Assembly: GCA_012513195.1 (NCBI GenBank)
Contig: JAAZCR010000249.1
Coordinates: 1-8,675 of the forward strand
DNA: 8,675 bases
Reading direction: 5' to 3'
Source: Bacilli bacterium
GTDB taxonomy: Bacteria > Bacillota_I > Bacilli_A > Haloplasmatales > Haloplasmataceae
This document shows positions 3,079-8,675 of the stretch, piece by piece; position 1 is the stretch's first letter, and each line of letters begins with the position of its first letter. Made by a program: the position numbers and the translations under genes. Below the pieces are notes generated by a model, which saw only the letters and a program-made list of their open reading frames with translations, ran no database searches and was not told the DNA's origin.

Positions 3079-3107
3079 GAAATATAGGTGCCTATATTTC
3101 TTATTTT
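3072..3107. terminator. Long perfect bidirectional terminator between the small gene and zur
   Basis: Sixteen uninterrupted base pairs (3072-3087 with 3092-3107) surround a 4-nt loop GTGC. The AT-rich outer arms provide A-tracts and T-tracts on both strands, with TTTTGTTTTT continuing on the plus strand. The stop codons of both convergent genes (3076-3078 plus, 3101-3103 minus) lie inside the stem. Confidence 0.88.
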
Positions 3108-3520
3108 GTTTTTCCTTGACAATTAGGACAGATACCGAATAATTCCAATTTGTGTTTTAAAATTGTAAAGGATGTTAATTGTTCGATTTGTTTTTCAAAC
3201 TCTGCAAAGGGACAGAAATCAATTTTTATCATTTTATGACATTTATCACACACTAAATAATGATGATGCTCATCGCGATTTAAGATATATGATGCTTTAT
3301 TGCCATCTTTCATTAAGGGGATTTGGACGATGTTTTTATTTAAGAAGACTTCTAATGTCCGATAAACAGTTGAAAGATTAATGGAGTCTTCTTCATTTTG
3401 AATTAATCGATAGATTTCTTCAGCGGTTAAAGGTTTATCTGCTTTATCTAGTATATCAAGAATTAATAAGCGACTCTTTGTTTGTTTAAGACCTTTTTTT
3501 AATAATATATCTTCCATCAT
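3101..3520 (-). CDS. zur: Fur-family metal repressor, probably zinc-responsive Zur
   Basis: A 139-residue Fur-family regulator. The N-terminal winged helix covers about 1-82, with the recognition helix signature STVYRTLE at 50-57. The C-terminal dimerisation/metal domain has HHHYLVCDKC (85-94) and a second CPNC (131-134), so the four-Cys structural zinc site C91/C94/C131/C134 is complete. Regulatory-metal histidines are H85-H87 and H96 of the same domain. Fur, Zur and PerR cannot be told apart safely by sequence alone. Its place as the last gene of a znuACB operon, with a Fur-like palindrome at the operon promoter, makes Zur the best call and implies autoregulation. Start: ATG 3520 or 3517, with AGGTGA at 3525-3530 overlapping the end of znuB; the gap to znuB is four bases. 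Confidence 0.88.
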   Translation of the reverse strand: MMEDILLKKGLKQTKSRLLILDILDKADKPLTAEEIYRLIQNEEDSINLSTVYRTLEVFLNKNIVQIPLMKDGNKASYILNRDEHHHYLVCDKCHKMIKIDFCPFAEFEKQIEQLTSFTILKHKLELFGICPNCQGKTK

Positions 3521-3524
3521 TTCA

Positions 3525-4352
3525 TCACCTAGATCTTAAAACTTTGAATAAATAAACAAAGACAAATATAATCCCATTAATCACAACAATCGTGGCTCCT
3601 GGTGGAGTATTGAGGATGATGGCAAGGAGAATTCCTAAAACAATGCTTATTATACTTATGATTAGGGAGTAAATAATGGTTTTCTTGAAACTTCGCGCTA
3701 TTTGTAGACTAATAACGGTAGGGAAAATGATTAAACTAGAGATTAACATCGTTCCGACAACCCTTATTCCTAACACAACTGTAAGAGAAGTAAGTATTGA
3801 GAGAATATAGTTTAATCGTTTCGTCTTTAGTCCTAATACTTGGGCAAAGTCTTCATCGTAGGTTAAAGCGAAGAAGTCATGATAGAAATATAATACAGTA
3901 AGAATGACGATTATTGATAAGATTAATGATAAATAGACATCAACATTACTCACTAACAATATATCCCCAAATAAATAGTTGGATAAATTAACAGTAAAAC
4001 CACTAGTGCTACTTGCGATGATATAACCAAGAGCGACAGAAAAAGAACTAACTAAGCCAATGGCCGCATCACCATGGACATCGGCTTTTTCATTTAGTTT
4101 TAATACTAAGAACGAAGAAAGGATTACTAAAGGAACGGATACATAAATGGGGGTTATACCTAGAAATAGTGCCAAGGCAATAGTACCAAAACTAACATGG
4201 GCTAGTCCATCGCCAATAAATGAGAATTTCCTTAGCACAAGAAAGATGCCTAATAGTGAAGAAGAGATTGCAACTAAGATACCAACGAAGATGGCTTTAT
4301 GGATGAAACTTGAACTTAAGGCTTCGATTAAAGTTTCAAATATATCATGCAT
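3525..4352 (-). CDS. znuB: Zinc ABC transporter permease ZnuB (ABC-3 family)
   Basis: A membrane permease of about 275 residues with about eight hydrophobic segments, of the ABC-3 family that imports zinc or manganese with a cluster A-I binding lipoprotein. Recognisable stretches include LGIFLVLRKFSFIGDGLAHVSFGTIALALFLG near the N-terminus, the conserved Asp/His-containing FSFIGDGLAHVSFG of this family, and GTMLISSLIIFPTVISLQ in the later half. I place the start at 4352 (MHDIFETLI), not at the upstream ATG 4373, because GAGGAG (4360-4365) stands seven bases before it. With this start the gene overlaps the end of znuC by eight bases (ATGCATGA), which suggests translational coupling. The stop TGA overlaps the ribosome site of zur. 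Confidence 0.92.
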   Translation of the reverse strand: MHDIFETLIEALSSSFIHKAIFVGILVAISSSLLGIFLVLRKFSFIGDGLAHVSFGTIALALFLGITPIYVSVPLVILSSFLVLKLNEKADVHGDAAIGLVSSFSVALGYIIASSTSGFTVNLSNYLFGDILLVSNVDVYLSLILSIIVILTVLYFYHDFFALTYDEDFAQVLGLKTKRLNYILSILTSLTVVLGIRVVGTMLISSLIIFPTVISLQIARSFKKTIIYSLIISIISIVLGILLAIILNTPPGATIVVINGIIFVFVYLFKVLRSR

Positions 4353-5028
4353 GATGATGCTCCTCAATATCAAGATAGTTTTCTTTTAAACCGTAATAAA
4401 GAATCGTTCGGTTAATGTAGAGAATTTTATTATAACCCGATTCTTTATTACCAGTATCATGGGTGATATGTAGGATAGTTATGCCATCTTCTTGGTTTAA
4501 GCGATTTAAGAATTGATAGAACTCCTGTTTGAAGTGCGGGTCAAGAGCGCTAGTAGGTTCATCAAGTATGAGTAATTGCGGATTATTGACGATCGCTCGC
4601 GCCAGTAATACTCGTTGTTGTTCGCCACCAGAGAGTTCTCCTATGCGGCGATATCTTAGATGATATATACCAAGTTTTTTCAATACTTCTTCAATCCGTT
4701 TATGATCATTTGCGGTAAATAATTTAGGACGTTTGTGATTGCCTAATAAACCTAATGAGACAATTTCTTTAACACTTGCAGGAAACATTTTATCGTTGTT
4801 GTTGTTTTTCTGAGGTAAATAACCAACTGTCTCTGCCTTAATAGTGATTGCGCCTTGATAGTCATTTATTAAGCCTAAAATAGCTTTAACAAGGGTGGTT
4901 TTACCTGCACCATTAGGTCCAATAATATTTACATAATCACCTTTATTAACAGTAAAACTCACATCTTTTACGACATCATCATGCCCATAAGCAATATTGA
5001 GATTTTCAACTTCAAGGATATTATTCAT
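4345..5028 (-). CDS. znuC: Zinc ABC transporter ATP-binding protein ZnuC
   Basis: A 227-residue ABC ATPase that would power ZnuB. Walker A GPNGAGKTT is at 37-45, Q-loop Gln73 (YLPQK), signature LSGGEQQ at 132-138, Walker B LLILDEP at 152-158, D-loop SALD at 160-163 and switch His190 (HITHD). The C-terminal end EEHHHA is a small His cluster that could touch metal, though this is speculative. The start ATG 5028 has AAGGGG at 5039-5044 and overlaps the znuA stop by eight bases (ATGAATAA). The other end overlaps znuB by eight bases. This tight chaining is typical of subunits made in fixed ratio. Confidence 0.95.
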   Translation of the reverse strand: MNNILEVENLNIAYGHDDVVKDVSFTVNKGDYVNIIGPNGAGKTTLVKAILGLINDYQGAITIKAETVGYLPQKNNNNDKMFPASVKEIVSLGLLGNHKRPKLFTANDHKRIEEVLKKLGIYHLRYRRIGELSGGEQQRVLLARAIVNNPQLLILDEPTSALDPHFKQEFYQFLNRLNQEDGITILHITHDTGNKESGYNKILYINRTILYYGLKENYLDIEEHHHA

Positions 5029-5950
5029 GGTAATTTAACCCCTTCTTTAAGTTTTCAATATTTTGATACATTAAATCTAGATATGTTACACCGCTTTCAT
5101 AATCCGCTTTCGTTATATAACCAGCACCATTTAGTGGTAAGAGTTTTGCGCCTGTTTCTTTGGCGATTATTTCTGCGACTTCAGGGTTAATTAGTTCCTC
5201 ATAGAAGATGGTTCTATTTCCAGTGGTTTCAATTACTTTAACGAGGTTTTGAAGATTTTTGGTTGTTGGTAAAGTATCAGGAGAGAATCCTTTGTATGGT
5301 GATACATGCTCAACACCATACCTTTCAGCAAGATAACCAAATACAAAGTGGCCACCAAAGATAATCGTCTTATGTTCAATTTTAGTGAATAAATCTTGAT
5401 AAGCTAAATCCAGTTTTACTAACTCTTGTTTATAATTAGATGCATTTTGACGATAGAAATCAGCATTATCGGGATCTATTTTAATAATGTTTTCTAAAAT
5501 ATTATCAACGATTTTTTGTGCCAGGATGGGATCTACCCAAATATGAGGATCAACATCATGATGATGTTTATGGTCATGGTCATCATCGTCTTCATGATGT
5601 AATTCAAGATTATCACTTACATTAACCACTAACACTTTGTCTTCATCTAGTACATCGATTAGTTTATCAGCCCAGACTTCAAGAAATGGACCTGTATAGA
5701 TAAAGAGTTTACTTTTACGAATTGTTAAAATATCTTGTGGTTTTAATTGATAGGTGTGTGGTTCATTGCCTGGCGGGAGAATCATTTTAACACTTAGTTT
5801 ATCTTGGGTGATTTGTCTTGTAAAATCGTATAAAGGAAAAATTGTGGTCGTAATGGTTACATTATAATTACTTCTAGTACTACAACCAGTGACTAAAAAT
5901 AAACTTATAAACATTACCAAGATTATTATCAAGTTTTTTATTTTCATCAT
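5021..5950 (-). CDS. znuA: Zinc-binding lipoprotein ZnuA (cluster A-I solute-binding protein)
   Basis: A 309-residue lipoprotein that captures zinc outside the cell for ZnuBC. The hydrophobic signal (about 5-22) ends in the lipobox LVTGC with Cys23 as the lipidated residue. Family zinc ligands are visible: His65 (GNEPHTYQ), His136 (VDPHIWVD) and His201 (FGGHFVFGYLAERYG). The fourth carboxylate position near 251-284 is not certain by eye. Between the first two ligands is the Asp/His-rich loop (residues 117-136, HHEDDDDHDHKHHHDVDPH), which marks zinc rather than manganese proteins. Start: ATG 5950 or the adjacent ATG 5947; AAAGGTGG lies just upstream. First gene of the operon, directly behind the Zur-type palindrome. 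Confidence 0.94.
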   Translation of the reverse strand: MMKIKNLIIILVMFISLFLVTGCSTRSNYNVTITTTIFPLYDFTRQITQDKLSVKMILPPGNEPHTYQLKPQDILTIRKSKLFIYTGPFLEVWADKLIDVLDEDKVLVVNVSDNLELHHEDDDDHDHKHHHDVDPHIWVDPILAQKIVDNILENIIKIDPDNADFYRQNASNYKQELVKLDLAYQDLFTKIEHKTIIFGGHFVFGYLAERYGVEHVSPYKGFSPDTLPTTKNLQNLVKVIETTGNRTIFYEELINPEVAEIIAKETGAKLLPLNGAGYITKADYESGVTYLDLMYQNIENLKKGLNYHE

Positions 5951-6362: not shown

Positions 6363-6635
6363 TAGTTTTTACTCAGAATAGTTACTATTTTATATTATTT
6401 CTATAAAATGATATTTTATGCATGATTTTAGATAATAAATTGATTTTTTTATAGGTGTTAGTATTGATATTTTTAGGAATGTAATGAGAGAAATGATAGT
6501 GAATTAGAAGTTAATTTAATAAAAATGTCCTTTTTATAAGGACATAAATAGTTATATGTAATAGTAAAAAAATAATGAAATATACATAAGGTTAGTTTTA
6601 TTAGAATCATGATTCGTATAGTAGAAGATATATTA
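6363..6635. other. AT-rich intergenic region, trailer side of the CRISPR array
   Basis: About 270 bp with no convincing ORF on either strand. It holds the minus-strand terminator at 6517-6545 and a 12-bp palindrome GAATCATGATTC (6604-6615) of unknown meaning. I see no leader-like or cas-related sequence. The array orientation makes this the trailer side. Confidence 0.6.
6517..6545 (-). terminator. Rho-independent terminator of the CRISPR transcript
   Basis: A perfect 8-bp stem ATGTCCTT/AAGGACAT (6525-6532 with 6538-6545) with a 5-nt loop is followed on the minus strand by TTTTTATT. It lies about 90 bp beyond the last, degenerate repeat in the direction inferred for pre-crRNA transcription, so it would end that transcript. 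Confidence 0.7.
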
Positions 6636-6787
6636 TTGTTTTAATGGATCATGCACTTCAACTTGAAAACCAAAACCCAATCGTACACCATCGTATCTTG
6701 TTTCAATCCTTGTTTTAATGGATCATGCACTTCAACTCTTTTTCATGCGATGATACTTATCGAACACTTCCGTTTCAATCCTTGTTT
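6636..6787 (-). CRISPR. CRISPR array, trailer-side part (two repeats plus a split repeat)
   Basis: The repeat is 37 nt, beginning GTTTCAATCCTTG, continuing TTTTAATGGATC and ending (A/T)TGCACTTCAAC on the plus strand. One full copy is at 6700-6736. A 27-nt copy that has lost its first ten bases is at 6636-6662. Only the first 16 bases survive at 6772-6787, where the IS element begins. Spacers are 6663-6699 (37 nt) and 6737-6771 (35 nt). Read on the minus strand the repeat ends GGATTGAAAC, which contains the 8-nt ATTGAAAC tag known at the 5' end of crRNAs of many type I-A/I-B and III systems. The array is therefore transcribed leftward and the degenerate copy is the terminal repeat. These repeats carry A at position 26. 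Confidence 0.93.
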
Positions 6788-6844
6788 CGTATATTAAAGT
6801 TAAGAGTTAGTTCTCTTAGTATAGTAATATTAATATAATTATAC

Positions 6845-6856
6845 TATAATTATAAT
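6845..6856 (+). promoter_or_regulatory. Likely -10 region for the bridge RNA
   Basis: Two tandem TATAAT hexamers (6845-6850 and 6851-6856) precede the first base-paired segment of the structured RNA. From the first one, a start seven or eight bases downstream falls on GG at 6858-6859, the first bases of a perfect 10-bp stem. No good -35 is visible at the usual distance, so the call rests on the -10 and the position. Confidence 0.45.
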
Positions 6857-7014
6857 TGGAAGTGTAGTTATATATTGTGAACATCGAGTTCGTAAAAACG
6901 ATTATACTTTAGTTTATATAATCGTCTACACTTCCCTTTGTTAGTACGAGCTAAGAGAACGATGACTCTTAGCTTTTCTTTTTTATATGGATATAAAAAA
7001 GAAAGTCTATAAGA

Positions 7015-7062
7015 AGGGCACATCCTTGTTTGAACTATCAAGTTCGCCATTAAAATTGCCCT
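7015..7062 (+). other. Target-binding loop of the bridge RNA, matching the CRISPR repeat
   Basis: Stem AGGGCA/TGCCCT (7015-7020 with 7057-7062) opens into an internal loop capped by GAACT-ATCA-AGTTC (7032-7045). The left side holds ATCCTTGTTT (7022-7031), identical to repeat bases 7-16 just left of the insertion. The right side holds CCATTAAAA (7047-7055), the exact reverse complement of TTTTAATGG, repeat bases 14-22. In IS621 the left guide copies the top strand of the left target and the right guide is the complement of the right target, exactly as seen here. Together the guides specify the 16-bp site ATCCTTGTTTTAATGG. Confidence 0.88.
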
Positions 7063-7068
7063 AAATAT

Positions 7069-7151
7069 CATTTTAAGCTCAGAGCTAGTTTATATCTAAT
7101 TGAACTTTCAAGTTCGCATCAATAACGAAAAATAGACCGAGTCTTAAAATG
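7069..7151 (+). other. Donor-binding loop of the bridge RNA, matching the element ends
   Basis: A perfect 9-bp stem CATTTTAAG/CTTAAAATG (7069-7077 with 7143-7151), extended by CTC/GAG (7078-7080 with 7139-7141), leads to a second stem GTTTAT/ATAGAC (7088-7093 with 7132-7137, one G-U). It is capped by GAACT-TTCA-AGTTC (7102-7115), nearly the same cap as the target loop. Left of the cap, TATCTAATT (7093-7101) equals the right end of the element plus core (8507-8515). Right of the cap, ACGAAA (7125-7130) is the complement of TTTCGT at the left junction (6785-6790). Confidence 0.78.
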
Positions 7152-7189
7152 GTCAAACCGTATTTCATCGTGAAAGGGAGGATAAAGTA

Positions 7190-8389
7190 GTGAAGATTCC
7201 TTGTGTAGCAGTGGATGTTTCCAAAGGTAAAAGTTTTTTTCAAGGTTTCATTGATTTAGACAAACCAATAAACAAAGCTACACCCATAAATCATGATTTA
7301 GAAGGTTTTGAATTAATGACTAAAATAGGTGATAAGTTAAAACAAGAGTATAATGATGTAGTTTATATTTTTGAAGCTACTGGTATCTATCACAAGAACT
7401 TACAGTCTTATCTAGATAACCGCAAAGAGAAATATATTATTTTAAATCCTTTAGAAGCAGCTAAAGTACGTAAAAGTCATTTAAGATCAACAAAGACTGA
7501 TAAAAGAGATTGTCTAAGTATCGCTAAGGCTTACTTCTTAAGAGACTACCCCATTCATCAAAAACAAGATGATATCTATCAAGAACTTCAAAGTATGAAT
7601 AGACATTATGAGTATCTAGTAAAGAAACTTAGATTAATGAAAACTCATTTTAGAACTCTTTTAGATGTTGTCTTTCCAATGTTTGATAAACTATTCGAAA
7701 ATATATATACCTCAATCCCTATTACTGTTTTAAAACTATTCTCTCATCCTATAGAACTTAAAAAAAGAAAACTAGAATCAATTACTAAACACTTAGTTCA
7801 TAATACAAATCATCGTGATTCATATTGTAGAAAGGAAGCAATTAGACTTAAACAATATGCCACTACTGTAGTTTCTGGTGTTAATTATGATAATTATCTA
7901 GTTTCTTTACTAAAGTCTGAAGTAATTCAAATTGAAAACCAATTAAAAGAACTAGACTTATGTATCAATAAGATGAAGACCTTAGCAGAGAATATACCTC
8001 TATATTACCAGTTACAAACTATCCCAGGAATAGGTGAAGTACTGGCAGTAAGATTAATAGCAGAAATGGGTGATTTAAGTCGTTTTACTTCAAAATGGAA
8101 ACTAGTAGCTTATGCTGGTTTAGATCCAACTGTATATCAATCAGGACAAATGACAGGTGAACACTTGCGAATTACTAAAAAGGGTAATAAGCGGTTAAGA
8201 ACATTGGTTTATCTAGCTGTAAGTTCAAATATTAAAAGTAAGAAACCTAATTCAATTAAAGAATATTACAAGAAAAAAAGGCAGCAGGCTAACCCTTTAG
8301 CCCATAAAGCTGCCCTTGTAGCTTGTGCTAATAAATTATTACGCATAATTTATAGCATGAGCAAAAGTGGAACCAATTTCCACTACTAA
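7190..8389 (+). CDS. IS110-family transposase (DEDD RuvC-like recombinase with Tnp20 domain)
   Basis: A 399-residue RNA-guided recombinase of the IS110 family. The N-terminal RuvC-like domain has the four acidic residues in order: Asp9 (VAVDVSKGKS), Glu62 (IFEATGIYH), and Asp104 with Asp107 (STKTDKRDCLS). A helical, coiled-coil-like linker spans about 125-265. The C-terminal Tnp20 domain includes QTIPGIGEVLAVRLIAEMGD (276-295) and AGLDPTVYQSGQMTG (309-323), where Ser318 is the expected nucleophilic serine that attaches to DNA. All catalytic residues are present and the frame is open throughout. The start is GTG at 7190, with AAAGGGAGG (7173-7181) eight bases before it. At 399 residues it is longer than IS621 transposase, mainly in the linker. 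It would act with the bridge RNA encoded upstream. Confidence 0.95.
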   Translation: MKIPCVAVDVSKGKSFFQGFIDLDKPINKATPINHDLEGFELMTKIGDKLKQEYNDVVYIFEATGIYHKNLQSYLDNRKEKYIILNPLEAAKVRKSHLRSTKTDKRDCLSIAKAYFLRDYPIHQKQDDIYQELQSMNRHYEYLVKKLRLMKTHFRTLLDVVFPMFDKLFENIYTSIPITVLKLFSHPIELKKRKLESITKHLVHNTNHRDSYCRKEAIRLKQYATTVVSGVNYDNYLVSLLKSEVIQIENQLKELDLCINKMKTLAENIPLYYQLQTIPGIGEVLAVRLIAEMGDLSRFTSKWKLVAYAGLDPTVYQSGQMTGEHLRITKKGNKRLRTLVYLAVSSNIKSKKPNSIKEYYKKKRQQANPLAHKAALVACANKLLRIIYSMSKSGTNFHY

Positions 8390-8426
8390 TAAATTAACAC
8401 CTTAAATATCATACCATTCTTTAAAA

Positions 8427-8448
8427 AAACTAGTACCTATACTAGTTT
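8427..8448. repeat. Inverted repeat in the right end of the IS element
   Basis: AAACTAGTA (8427-8435) and TACTAGTTT (8440-8448) form a perfect 9-bp hairpin with loop CCTA between the transposase stop and the terminator. The following run CTTTTAG is weak for termination. It may protect the mRNA end or help recognise the right end. Confidence 0.5.
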
Positions 8449-8456
8449 CTTTTAGC

Positions 8457-8491
8457 ATGCCCATAAAACTAATAGGGCATTTTTTTATTTT
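8457..8491 (+). terminator. Rho-independent terminator of the transposase gene
   Basis: Stem ATGCCC/GGGCAT (8457-8462 with 8475-8480) is followed by seven T (8480-8486) and ATTTT. It works on the plus strand only; the minus strand has no T-run after the stem, so it should not stop leftward CRISPR transcription. Confidence 0.85.
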
Positions 8492-8513
8492 CCTATTGAC
8501 TTTTATTATCTAA

Positions 8514-8675
8514 TTTTAATTGATCTTGCACTTCAACAGTTAATTATAGAAAGGAGGAAAAGCGGTGCGTTGGGGTTTCAATCCTTGTTTTAATGGATCT
8601 TGCACTTCAACTTTCGCCACATCATCACCTTCTTCCTAAAAATCAAGTTTCAATCCTTGTTTTAATGGATCTTGC
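8514..8675 (-). CRISPR. CRISPR array, leader-side part (runs off the window)
   Basis: The array resumes after the IS element with the 24-nt end of the split repeat (8514-8537). Spacer 8538-8574 (37 nt), a perfect repeat 8575-8611, spacer 8612-8646 (35 nt) and a repeat from 8647 cut at its 29th base by the window end follow. Repeats here carry T at position 26 (GGATCTTGC), where the trailer-side copies have A. The leader and newer spacers should lie to the right. The array belongs with the part at 6636-6787; no cas gene is in the window. Confidence 0.95.

What the first reader, a model, noticed from the sequence alone, without database searches (positions are those of the whole stretch)
7015..7062. 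IS110 bridge RNA whose target guides spell the CRISPR repeat
Seen: inside one stem-loop upstream of the transposase, ATCCTTGTTT copies repeat bases 7-16 and CCATTAAAA is the exact complement of repeat bases 14-22. The two flank a small hairpin in the order expected of left and right target guides. The element sits at exactly this place in a repeat. Known: IS110-family elements (IS621 is the type case) use a bridge RNA with such loops. Inference: this element is programmed to insert into the CRISPR repeats of its host, making the array a safe, multi-copy landing site. I cannot say from here whether this has been described.
Basis: partly seen in the sequence, partly recalled or inferred. Interest (0 to 1): 0.95.

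Follow-up and report, generated by a model that had tools for sequence, protein, structure and literature searches.

The report
RNA-guided jumping gene targets CRISPR repeats
A bacterial jumping gene of the IS110 family carries a predicted guide RNA whose two target-reading stretches match its host's CRISPR repeat, and at four separate places in this one genome its left end is joined to the same base of such a repeat, so it likely uses the immune system's own repeats as its landing site.

Summary
The element (6788-8513 plus a T-run core) splits a repeat there; rejoined flanks give 36 of 37 repeat bases. The 16-base target has three exact matches in the 1.84 Mb genome, all CRISPR repeats. Three more contigs end inside further left ends of the element, and all four left junctions lie at the same repeat base, with different spacers and flanks. 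In homologues, guides co-vary with flanks on both sides (0 of 20,000 permutations each). Relatives lie at T-runs, 11 of 20 behind terminator-like hairpins; no CRISPR array was detected at any of 83 fetched relative loci (duplicates included). So this lineage was probably retargeted from such T-runs to the repeat of a host with a type I-B system. The element is IS110-group by the sequence features tested. A Tn7-like case of CRISPR-repeat targeting is in print (title seen only); my searches listed none for IS110. Transcript and recombination are untested.

The parts
6788..8513 (+). IS110 element body (1726 bp; the T-run core of about 3 bases is shared with the target)
   Evidence: Ends CGTATAYT and TTATCTAA recur in homologues; rejoined flanks restore the repeat, 36 of 37
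6772..6787 (+). Left half of the split CRISPR repeat (left target + core)
   Evidence: same half-repeat at four left junctions, one of them with 1 mismatch
8514..8537 (+). Right half of the split CRISPR repeat (core + right target)
   Evidence: one mismatch (G to T) to consensus
6626..6662 (-). Degenerate terminal CRISPR repeat (leader-distal end)
   Evidence: families D1-D3
6700..6736 (-). Intact CRISPR repeat
   Evidence: Rfam RF01320, 50.9 bits
8575..8611 (-). Intact CRISPR repeat
   Evidence: Rfam RF01320, 53 bits
8647..8675 (-). CRISPR repeat cut by contig end
   Evidence: Rfam RF01320, 43.8 bits
6858..6935 (+). 5' stem-loop of the predicted bridge RNA
   Evidence: Fold; counterparts visible upstream in homologues by eye
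7015..7062 (+). Target-binding loop
   Evidence: Fold; stem and inner hairpin with compensatory changes in 20 sequences
7022..7031 (+). Left target guide, ATCCTTGTTT = repeat bases 7-16
   Evidence: co-variation in homologues
7047..7055 (+). Right target guide, CCATTAAAA = reverse complement of repeat bases 14-22
   Evidence: co-variation in homologues
7067..7153 (+). Predicted donor-binding stem-loop
   Evidence: Outer stem in the fold. The inner hairpin 7102-7115 is supported by compensatory changes (helix 3), but the window's own minimum-energy fold draws other pairs there
7093..7101 (+). Left donor guide, TATCTAATT = right element end and core, 8507-8515
7125..7130 (+). Right donor guide, ACGAAA = reverse complement of 6785-6790 (TTTCGT)
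   Evidence: ACGAAA in 19 of the 20 aligned sequences, window included (AGGAAA in L019)
7190..8389 (+). IS110 transposase (recombinase), 399 aa, open throughout
8496..8501 (+). -35 TTGACT of a promoter predicted to form only at the circle junction
6790..6795 (+). -10 TATATT of the same junction promoter, spacing 17 in the inferred circle

Best explanation
This is an IS110-group insertion sequence whose predicted bridge RNA carries left and right target guides that match its host's CRISPR repeat, so its transposase is likely led to insert after base 16 of those repeats, where four left-end junctions in this genome in fact lie. Shown: the guide matches, the insertion point, four junctions beside different spacers, guide-flank co-variation in homologues, and compensatory changes in the RNA helices. 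Inferred from IS621: the element excises as a circle; the joined ends make a promoter (TTGACT, 17 bases, TATATT) that drives bridge RNA and transposase; the RNA pairs with both strands of a repeat through its target loop and with the circle junction through its donor loop; the transposase exchanges strands at the shared T-run. Also inferred: relatives aim at T-runs, often of intrinsic terminators, and this lineage changed its guides to a repeat that keeps the TTTT core.
For: Guides 10 of 10 and 9 of 9 to the repeat; the 16-mer is exact only in CRISPR repeats of the own genome. Own contigs C210, C271 and C60 end inside further left ends, joined to GTTTCAATCCTTGTTT (C60: one mismatch) with different spacers and flanks. 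Left guide against left flank, 21 elements: mean longest shared word 6.95 for true pairs, 4.60 for swapped pairs; right, 20 elements: 7.6 against 5.5; 0 of 20,000 permutations reach either total, with or without the window. No other element's left guide shares more than 5 bases with this left target and no other right guide more than 7 with the repeat's right target. Helices: 98.1% of cells paired and 9 of 13 pairs with changes on both sides, 0 of 500 shuffles for either. Junction promoter with TTGA and spacing 17 in 15 of 18 elements, given a TTT core. A type I-B cas operon is in the genome.
Against: No transcript and no recombination assay. Only one copy is assembled through its guides; the other three contigs end before them, and no other right junction was found. 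Six of 21 left guides share only 4 or 5 bases with their flanks (L008, L011, L012, L018, L041, L064) and one of 20 right guides only 4 (L015), so guides and present sites are not always in step. Congener G003 holds a truncated right end (L085) beside TTTTAATGG followed by 15 bases that are at best a decayed repeat (9 of 15; 0.7% of background positions do as well). The window's own fold does not draw the conserved inner donor hairpin. One measure of pair variety was no better than shuffles (190 of 500). Permutations do not correct for relatedness.
Confidence: 0.88

Rival explanations
1. The element inserts at T-runs in general and the CRISPR repeat was hit because it contains TTTT; the longer guide match is not what chose the site.
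For: The readable relatives have T-runs at the core and T-rich guides; the window is 32% G+C, so T-runs should be common.
Against: The window guides match 16 bases, well beyond the T-run. All four left junctions found are in CRISPR repeats. Guides co-vary with flanks across the family.
Confidence: 0.04
2. One guided insertion into one repeat, then copied to other arrays by homologous recombination between repeats rather than by transposition.
For: CRISPR repeats and element copies are shared homology; only one side of three of the four insertions is assembled, and the C271 left end is identical to the window's over 95 bases.
Against: The four flanks and spacers outside the left junction all differ, so each exchange would have to fall within the 16-base half repeat or further left; the C60 and C210 left ends differ from the window's (98 and 97%).
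Confidence: 0.07
3. The loop match is a coincidence or an alignment artefact and the element is not RNA-guided.
For: No transcript data.
Against: Exact matches in a conserved, co-varying loop, with the guide order published for IS621.
Confidence: 0.01

Closest known systems
IS621 and the IS110 bridge RNA system (PMC11208160; passages read)
   Same: DEDD plus Tnp20-domain recombinase, RNA-coding region upstream of the gene, target loop with a left guide that pairs with the bottom strand and a right guide that pairs with the top strand, donor loop, repeated short sequence as target (REP elements for IS621)
   Different: Target is a CRISPR repeat; T-run core instead of CT; 16-base guide match against an 11-bp target; 399 aa against 328 (chain 8wt6)
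IS1111 group / seekRNA elements such as ISKpn4 (attC) and ISPa11 (REP) (PMC11187229; passages read)
   Same: RNA-guided, each aims at one recurring host sequence; natural reprogramming reported
   Different: There the longer non-coding region is downstream of tnp and the guide order is reversed
Tn7-like transposons that target CRISPR repeats (Chacon Machado and Peters, Mob DNA 2025; only the title seen, in the reference list of PMC12765450; paper not held)
   Same: A transposon using CRISPR repeats as target, going by the title
   Different: Different transposase family; no second gene of that kind in this element
ISC1229, an IS110-family element of Saccharolobus with Cbp1 binding sites that resemble CRISPR repeats (PMC10883916; passages read)
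   Same: IS110-family element with a CRISPR-repeat-like motif, in the 3' flank (7 sites) or the ORF (2 sites)
   Different: There a protein-binding motif; guide targeting is not discussed in the passages I read; not tested here

Membership tests
IS110 group | DEDD RuvC-like domain and Tnp20 domain with conserved serine | tested here: met
   PF01548 and PF02371, NF033542 above cut-off; D9, E62, D104, D107 and S318 invariant in 37 aligned proteins; that these are the catalytic residues is recalled
IS110 group | Longer non-coding region upstream of tnp | tested here: met
   402 bases upstream (6788-7189) against 124 downstream (8390-8513)
IS110 group | Target loop with left guide 5' and right guide 3', matching the insertion site | tested here: met
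IS110 group | Donor loop with guides matching the element ends | tested here: met
   9 of 9 to the right end; 6 bases (ACGAAA) to the left end, beyond which a bulge would be needed; inner hairpin by co-variation, not in the window's own fold
IS110 group | Circular intermediate with a promoter formed at the junction | tested here: inconclusive
   Predicted only: TTGACT-17-TATATT in the inferred circle; TTGA with spacing 17 in 15 of 18 elements
IS110 group | Bridge RNA expressed and recombinase active | not testable with these tools
   No RNA or biochemical data
IS1111 group | Longer non-coding region (guide RNA) downstream of tnp | tested here: not met
IS1111 group | Subterminal inverted repeats of 11-13 bp | not tested
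Tn7-like / CRISPR-associated transposons | TnsB, TnsC, TniQ genes in the element | tested here: not met
   Only two ORFs of 60 aa or more overlap the element: the IS110 transposase and a 67-aa frame on the - strand over the RNA region
Casposons | Cas1 integrase inside the element | tested here: not met
   The one Cas1 match of the genome is in the cas operon on C271

The most novel reading that the evidence does not exclude
A lineage of IS110 elements has made the CRISPR repeat its dedicated niche, and its bridge RNA talks to the immune system: the left guide AUCCUUGUUU is antisense to AAACAAGGAU in the host pre-crRNA, across the presumed Cas6 cut site, so bridge RNA and crRNA could titrate each other, tying transposition to CRISPR activity.
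Probability: 0.15. Interest if true: 0.92.

Novelty: new variant of a known kind. Interest (0 to 1): 0.82.

Why it matters
If true, it shows in nature a bridge-RNA element moved from its relatives' kind of target to a new one by changes in two short guides, and the new target is the adaptive immune memory itself: multi-copy, non-coding, renewed at one end, and perhaps tolerant of insertions at the old end. It makes two questions testable: how bridge RNAs are reprogrammed in evolution, and whether mobile elements can live inside CRISPR arrays without silencing them. It also offers a compact family (T-run core, about 10 + 9 base guides) with many natural guide-target pairs for work on bridge recombinases.

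Tried and rejected
Single-protein scans of genome contigs and viral contigs gave no relatives; an alignment query did. The 86% identical relative P0002 was not located as DNA, so the nearest relative's target is unknown. A viral-contig scan for a repeat half plus left end gave one hit (L108); by eye it is a chance match with no CRISPR repeat around it. Regular repeats beside L063 read like a tandem gene repeat, not a CRISPR array (by eye). Plasmid relatives (24 records, 8 listed at 32-33% identity) were not pursued. A first pair count used a structure that I had placed out of register; the correct one is. A first rejoining of the repeat used a wrong offset; the correct one is. That relatives target terminators holds for 11 of 20 relatives with a stable hairpin before the T-run (z of -2.5 or lower against 200 plain shuffles of each), not for the rest. 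I did not predict a protein structure. The confidence of the best explanation went from 0.90 to 0.88 so that it and the rivals sum to 1.

Rows left out of the co-variation count: of the 83 relative loci (duplicates included) I used 25 relatives, plus the window, whose loop could be read. Left out: duplicates named; loci where my pattern found no left end of the CGTATAYT type (L020-L023, L025, L028-L031, L033-L035, L039, L040, L062); L070 (ambiguous loop); L027, L038, L043, L045, L046, L072-L074, L091, L092 (no readable loop or end); L047, L048, L050-L061 (distant, not listed at the E-value limit); L106, L107, L109, L110, L111 (fetched later; L106, L107 and L109 show the same ends as L009, L010 and L036). 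Guide strings were entered by hand; loops of L026, L032 and L036 were assigned by eye.

Full report
What was checked. The window is contig C120 of a 1.84 Mb draft genome in 314 contigs, 91% complete. It ends inside a CRISPR array with a 37-base repeat (Rfam CRISPR-DR7). After base 16 of one repeat lies an IS110 element of 1726 bp plus a shared T-run. Its transposase (7190-8389) has both IS110 Pfam domains, passes the NCBIfam cut-off for 'IS110 family RNA-guided transposase', and its C-terminal part matches ISCro4 and IS621 chains of the PDB.

Anatomy. Folding 6857-7165 gives a 5' stem-loop, two further hairpins, a target loop with 7021-7030 and 7047-7056 open on either side of a small hairpin, and a donor stem-loop. 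In 20 aligned sequences, window included, the target stem, its inner hairpin and the inner donor hairpin keep pairing in 98.1% of cells, with changes on both sides in 9 of 13 pairs; 0 of 500 shuffles reach either value, while the number of further pair types is ordinary (190 of 500). The window's own minimum-energy fold does not draw the inner donor hairpin. The donor guides fit the element ends: 9 of 9 bases on the right, 6 bases on the left. If the circle joint keeps three Ts, as the junctions suggest, the right end supplies TTGACT and the left end TATATT at 17 bases; TTGA with this spacing holds in 15 of 18 elements.

Target. The guides together spell a 16-base target. In the own genome it occurs exactly three times, all CRISPR repeats of this contig; the one single-mismatch site is a repeat of another array. 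Of 40 relatives searched (own genome included) only the own genome and one congener, G003, have exact matches, three each; the three in G003 also lie in CRISPR repeats.

More copies. A DNA search of the own genome and seven family members found left-end pieces on three other own contigs, C210, C271 and C60. At all four left junctions the element follows GTTTCAATCCTTGTTT, with one mismatch in C60, and the spacers and outer flanks differ. C271 carries a type I-B cas operon (cas1, cas2, cas4, cas8b, cas7, cas5 and a cas3 piece); C210 continues into recG. Congener G003 has an array beside what reads as the same gene start; its four repeats there are not split, but its spacers differ too (by eye), so it shows a matching array without the element rather than the same empty site. 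In each of the four cases the element lies in the second or third repeat from the end that carries a degenerate repeat (by eye). That this is the leader-distal end is taken from G003, where a cas6b gene and an AT-rich stretch precede the GTTGAAG side of the first repeat. Insertions near the old end would cost few spacers; this is inference from n = 4, and older insertions also drift to that end as spacers are added.

Homologues. One genome-contig scan, one viral scan and four whole-genome searches (matches in 13 of 395, 12 of 160, 3 of 90 and 11 of 392 genomes in the last four, overlapping sets) gave 83 relative loci, duplicates and distant relatives included. A simple scan for spaced repeats flags one of them, L063, which reads as a tandem gene repeat; arrays beyond short contig ends would be missed. 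In 26 elements, window included, the target loop could be read: 21 with a left flank, 20 with a right flank. Guides match their own flanks better than others' (6.95 against 4.60; 7.6 against 5.5 mean longest shared word) and 0 of 20,000 permutations reach the total on either side, with or without the window. Examples: L009 GCTTCTTTT, L013 ACCTCTTTT, L024 TAGTCATTT on the left; L007 TTTTCTTT, L019 TTTCTTTT, L032 TTTTGTTT on the right. Against: six left guides (L008, L011, L012, L018, L041, L064) share only 4 or 5 bases with their flanks and one right guide (L015) only 4. Eleven of 20 relatives have a stable hairpin running into the T-run, as in intrinsic terminators; the window flank does not (z 0.7). 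So the family's usual target seems to be a T-run, often of a terminator, and the window element has guides for a repeat that keeps TTTT.

Remnants in the congener. G003 has a transposase fragment at the end of contig C45, in a stretch that by eye matches this window's locus downstream of znuA, and a C-terminal fragment with a right end on C156, within 0.2 kb of a cas6b gene. The latter's right end is followed by TTTTAATGG, which is the right target, and then by 15 bases of which 9 agree with the repeat; 0.7% of background positions do as well. It is either a decayed repeat or a non-CRISPR site; it has no guides left to test.

Literature. Searches combining IS110 with CRISPR repeat, CRISPR array, bridge RNA, target site, insertion site and transcription terminator, and transposons with CRISPR repeats (the lists of 8, 54 and 59 were capped at 30 of 36, 20 of 24 and 10 of 257) listed no paper that by title or start of abstract reports an IS110 element targeting CRISPR repeats. 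I read passages of PMC11208160, PMC11187229, PMC10883916 and PMC12765450 and opened no other listed paper. One reference title reports Tn7-like transposons that target CRISPR repeats; that paper is not held. Preprints and most subscription journals are not in the library, so an earlier report may exist.

Verdict. Observation confirmed, interpretation supported. The strongest new facts are the four same-phase left junctions and the family-wide co-variation of guides and flanks. Still inferred: transcription, circle formation, guided recombination, harmlessness to the host, and any crosstalk between bridge RNA and crRNA.

Noticed in passing
6858-6935: The 5' stem-loop holds GAACATCGAGTTC followed by GTAAAAAC, looking like a third guide loop, but a similar stretch recurs in many relatives (by eye), so perhaps a protein-docking part.
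   Followed up: no
7022-7031: The left guide is antisense to the repeat part of the host's pre-crRNA across the presumed Cas6 cleavage site (cut position recalled).
   Followed up: no
L085:3794-3962 and L105 (end): Decayed remnants of the same element family in the congener, one near cas6b and a CRISPR array, one at what reads as the counterpart of this window's locus.
   Followed up: partly
L063:2897-4197: An IS110 relative for which no left end was found lies beside a long run of regularly spaced repeats that looks like a repeat-protein gene.
   Followed up: no
L024 flanks: This relative's left and right flanks both hold GTATAGTCA, so its target is itself a short direct repeat.
   Followed up: no
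3101-5950: Ordinary-looking metal-uptake genes: Fur-family regulator, ABC permease and ATPase, ZnuA-like binding protein.
   Followed up: no
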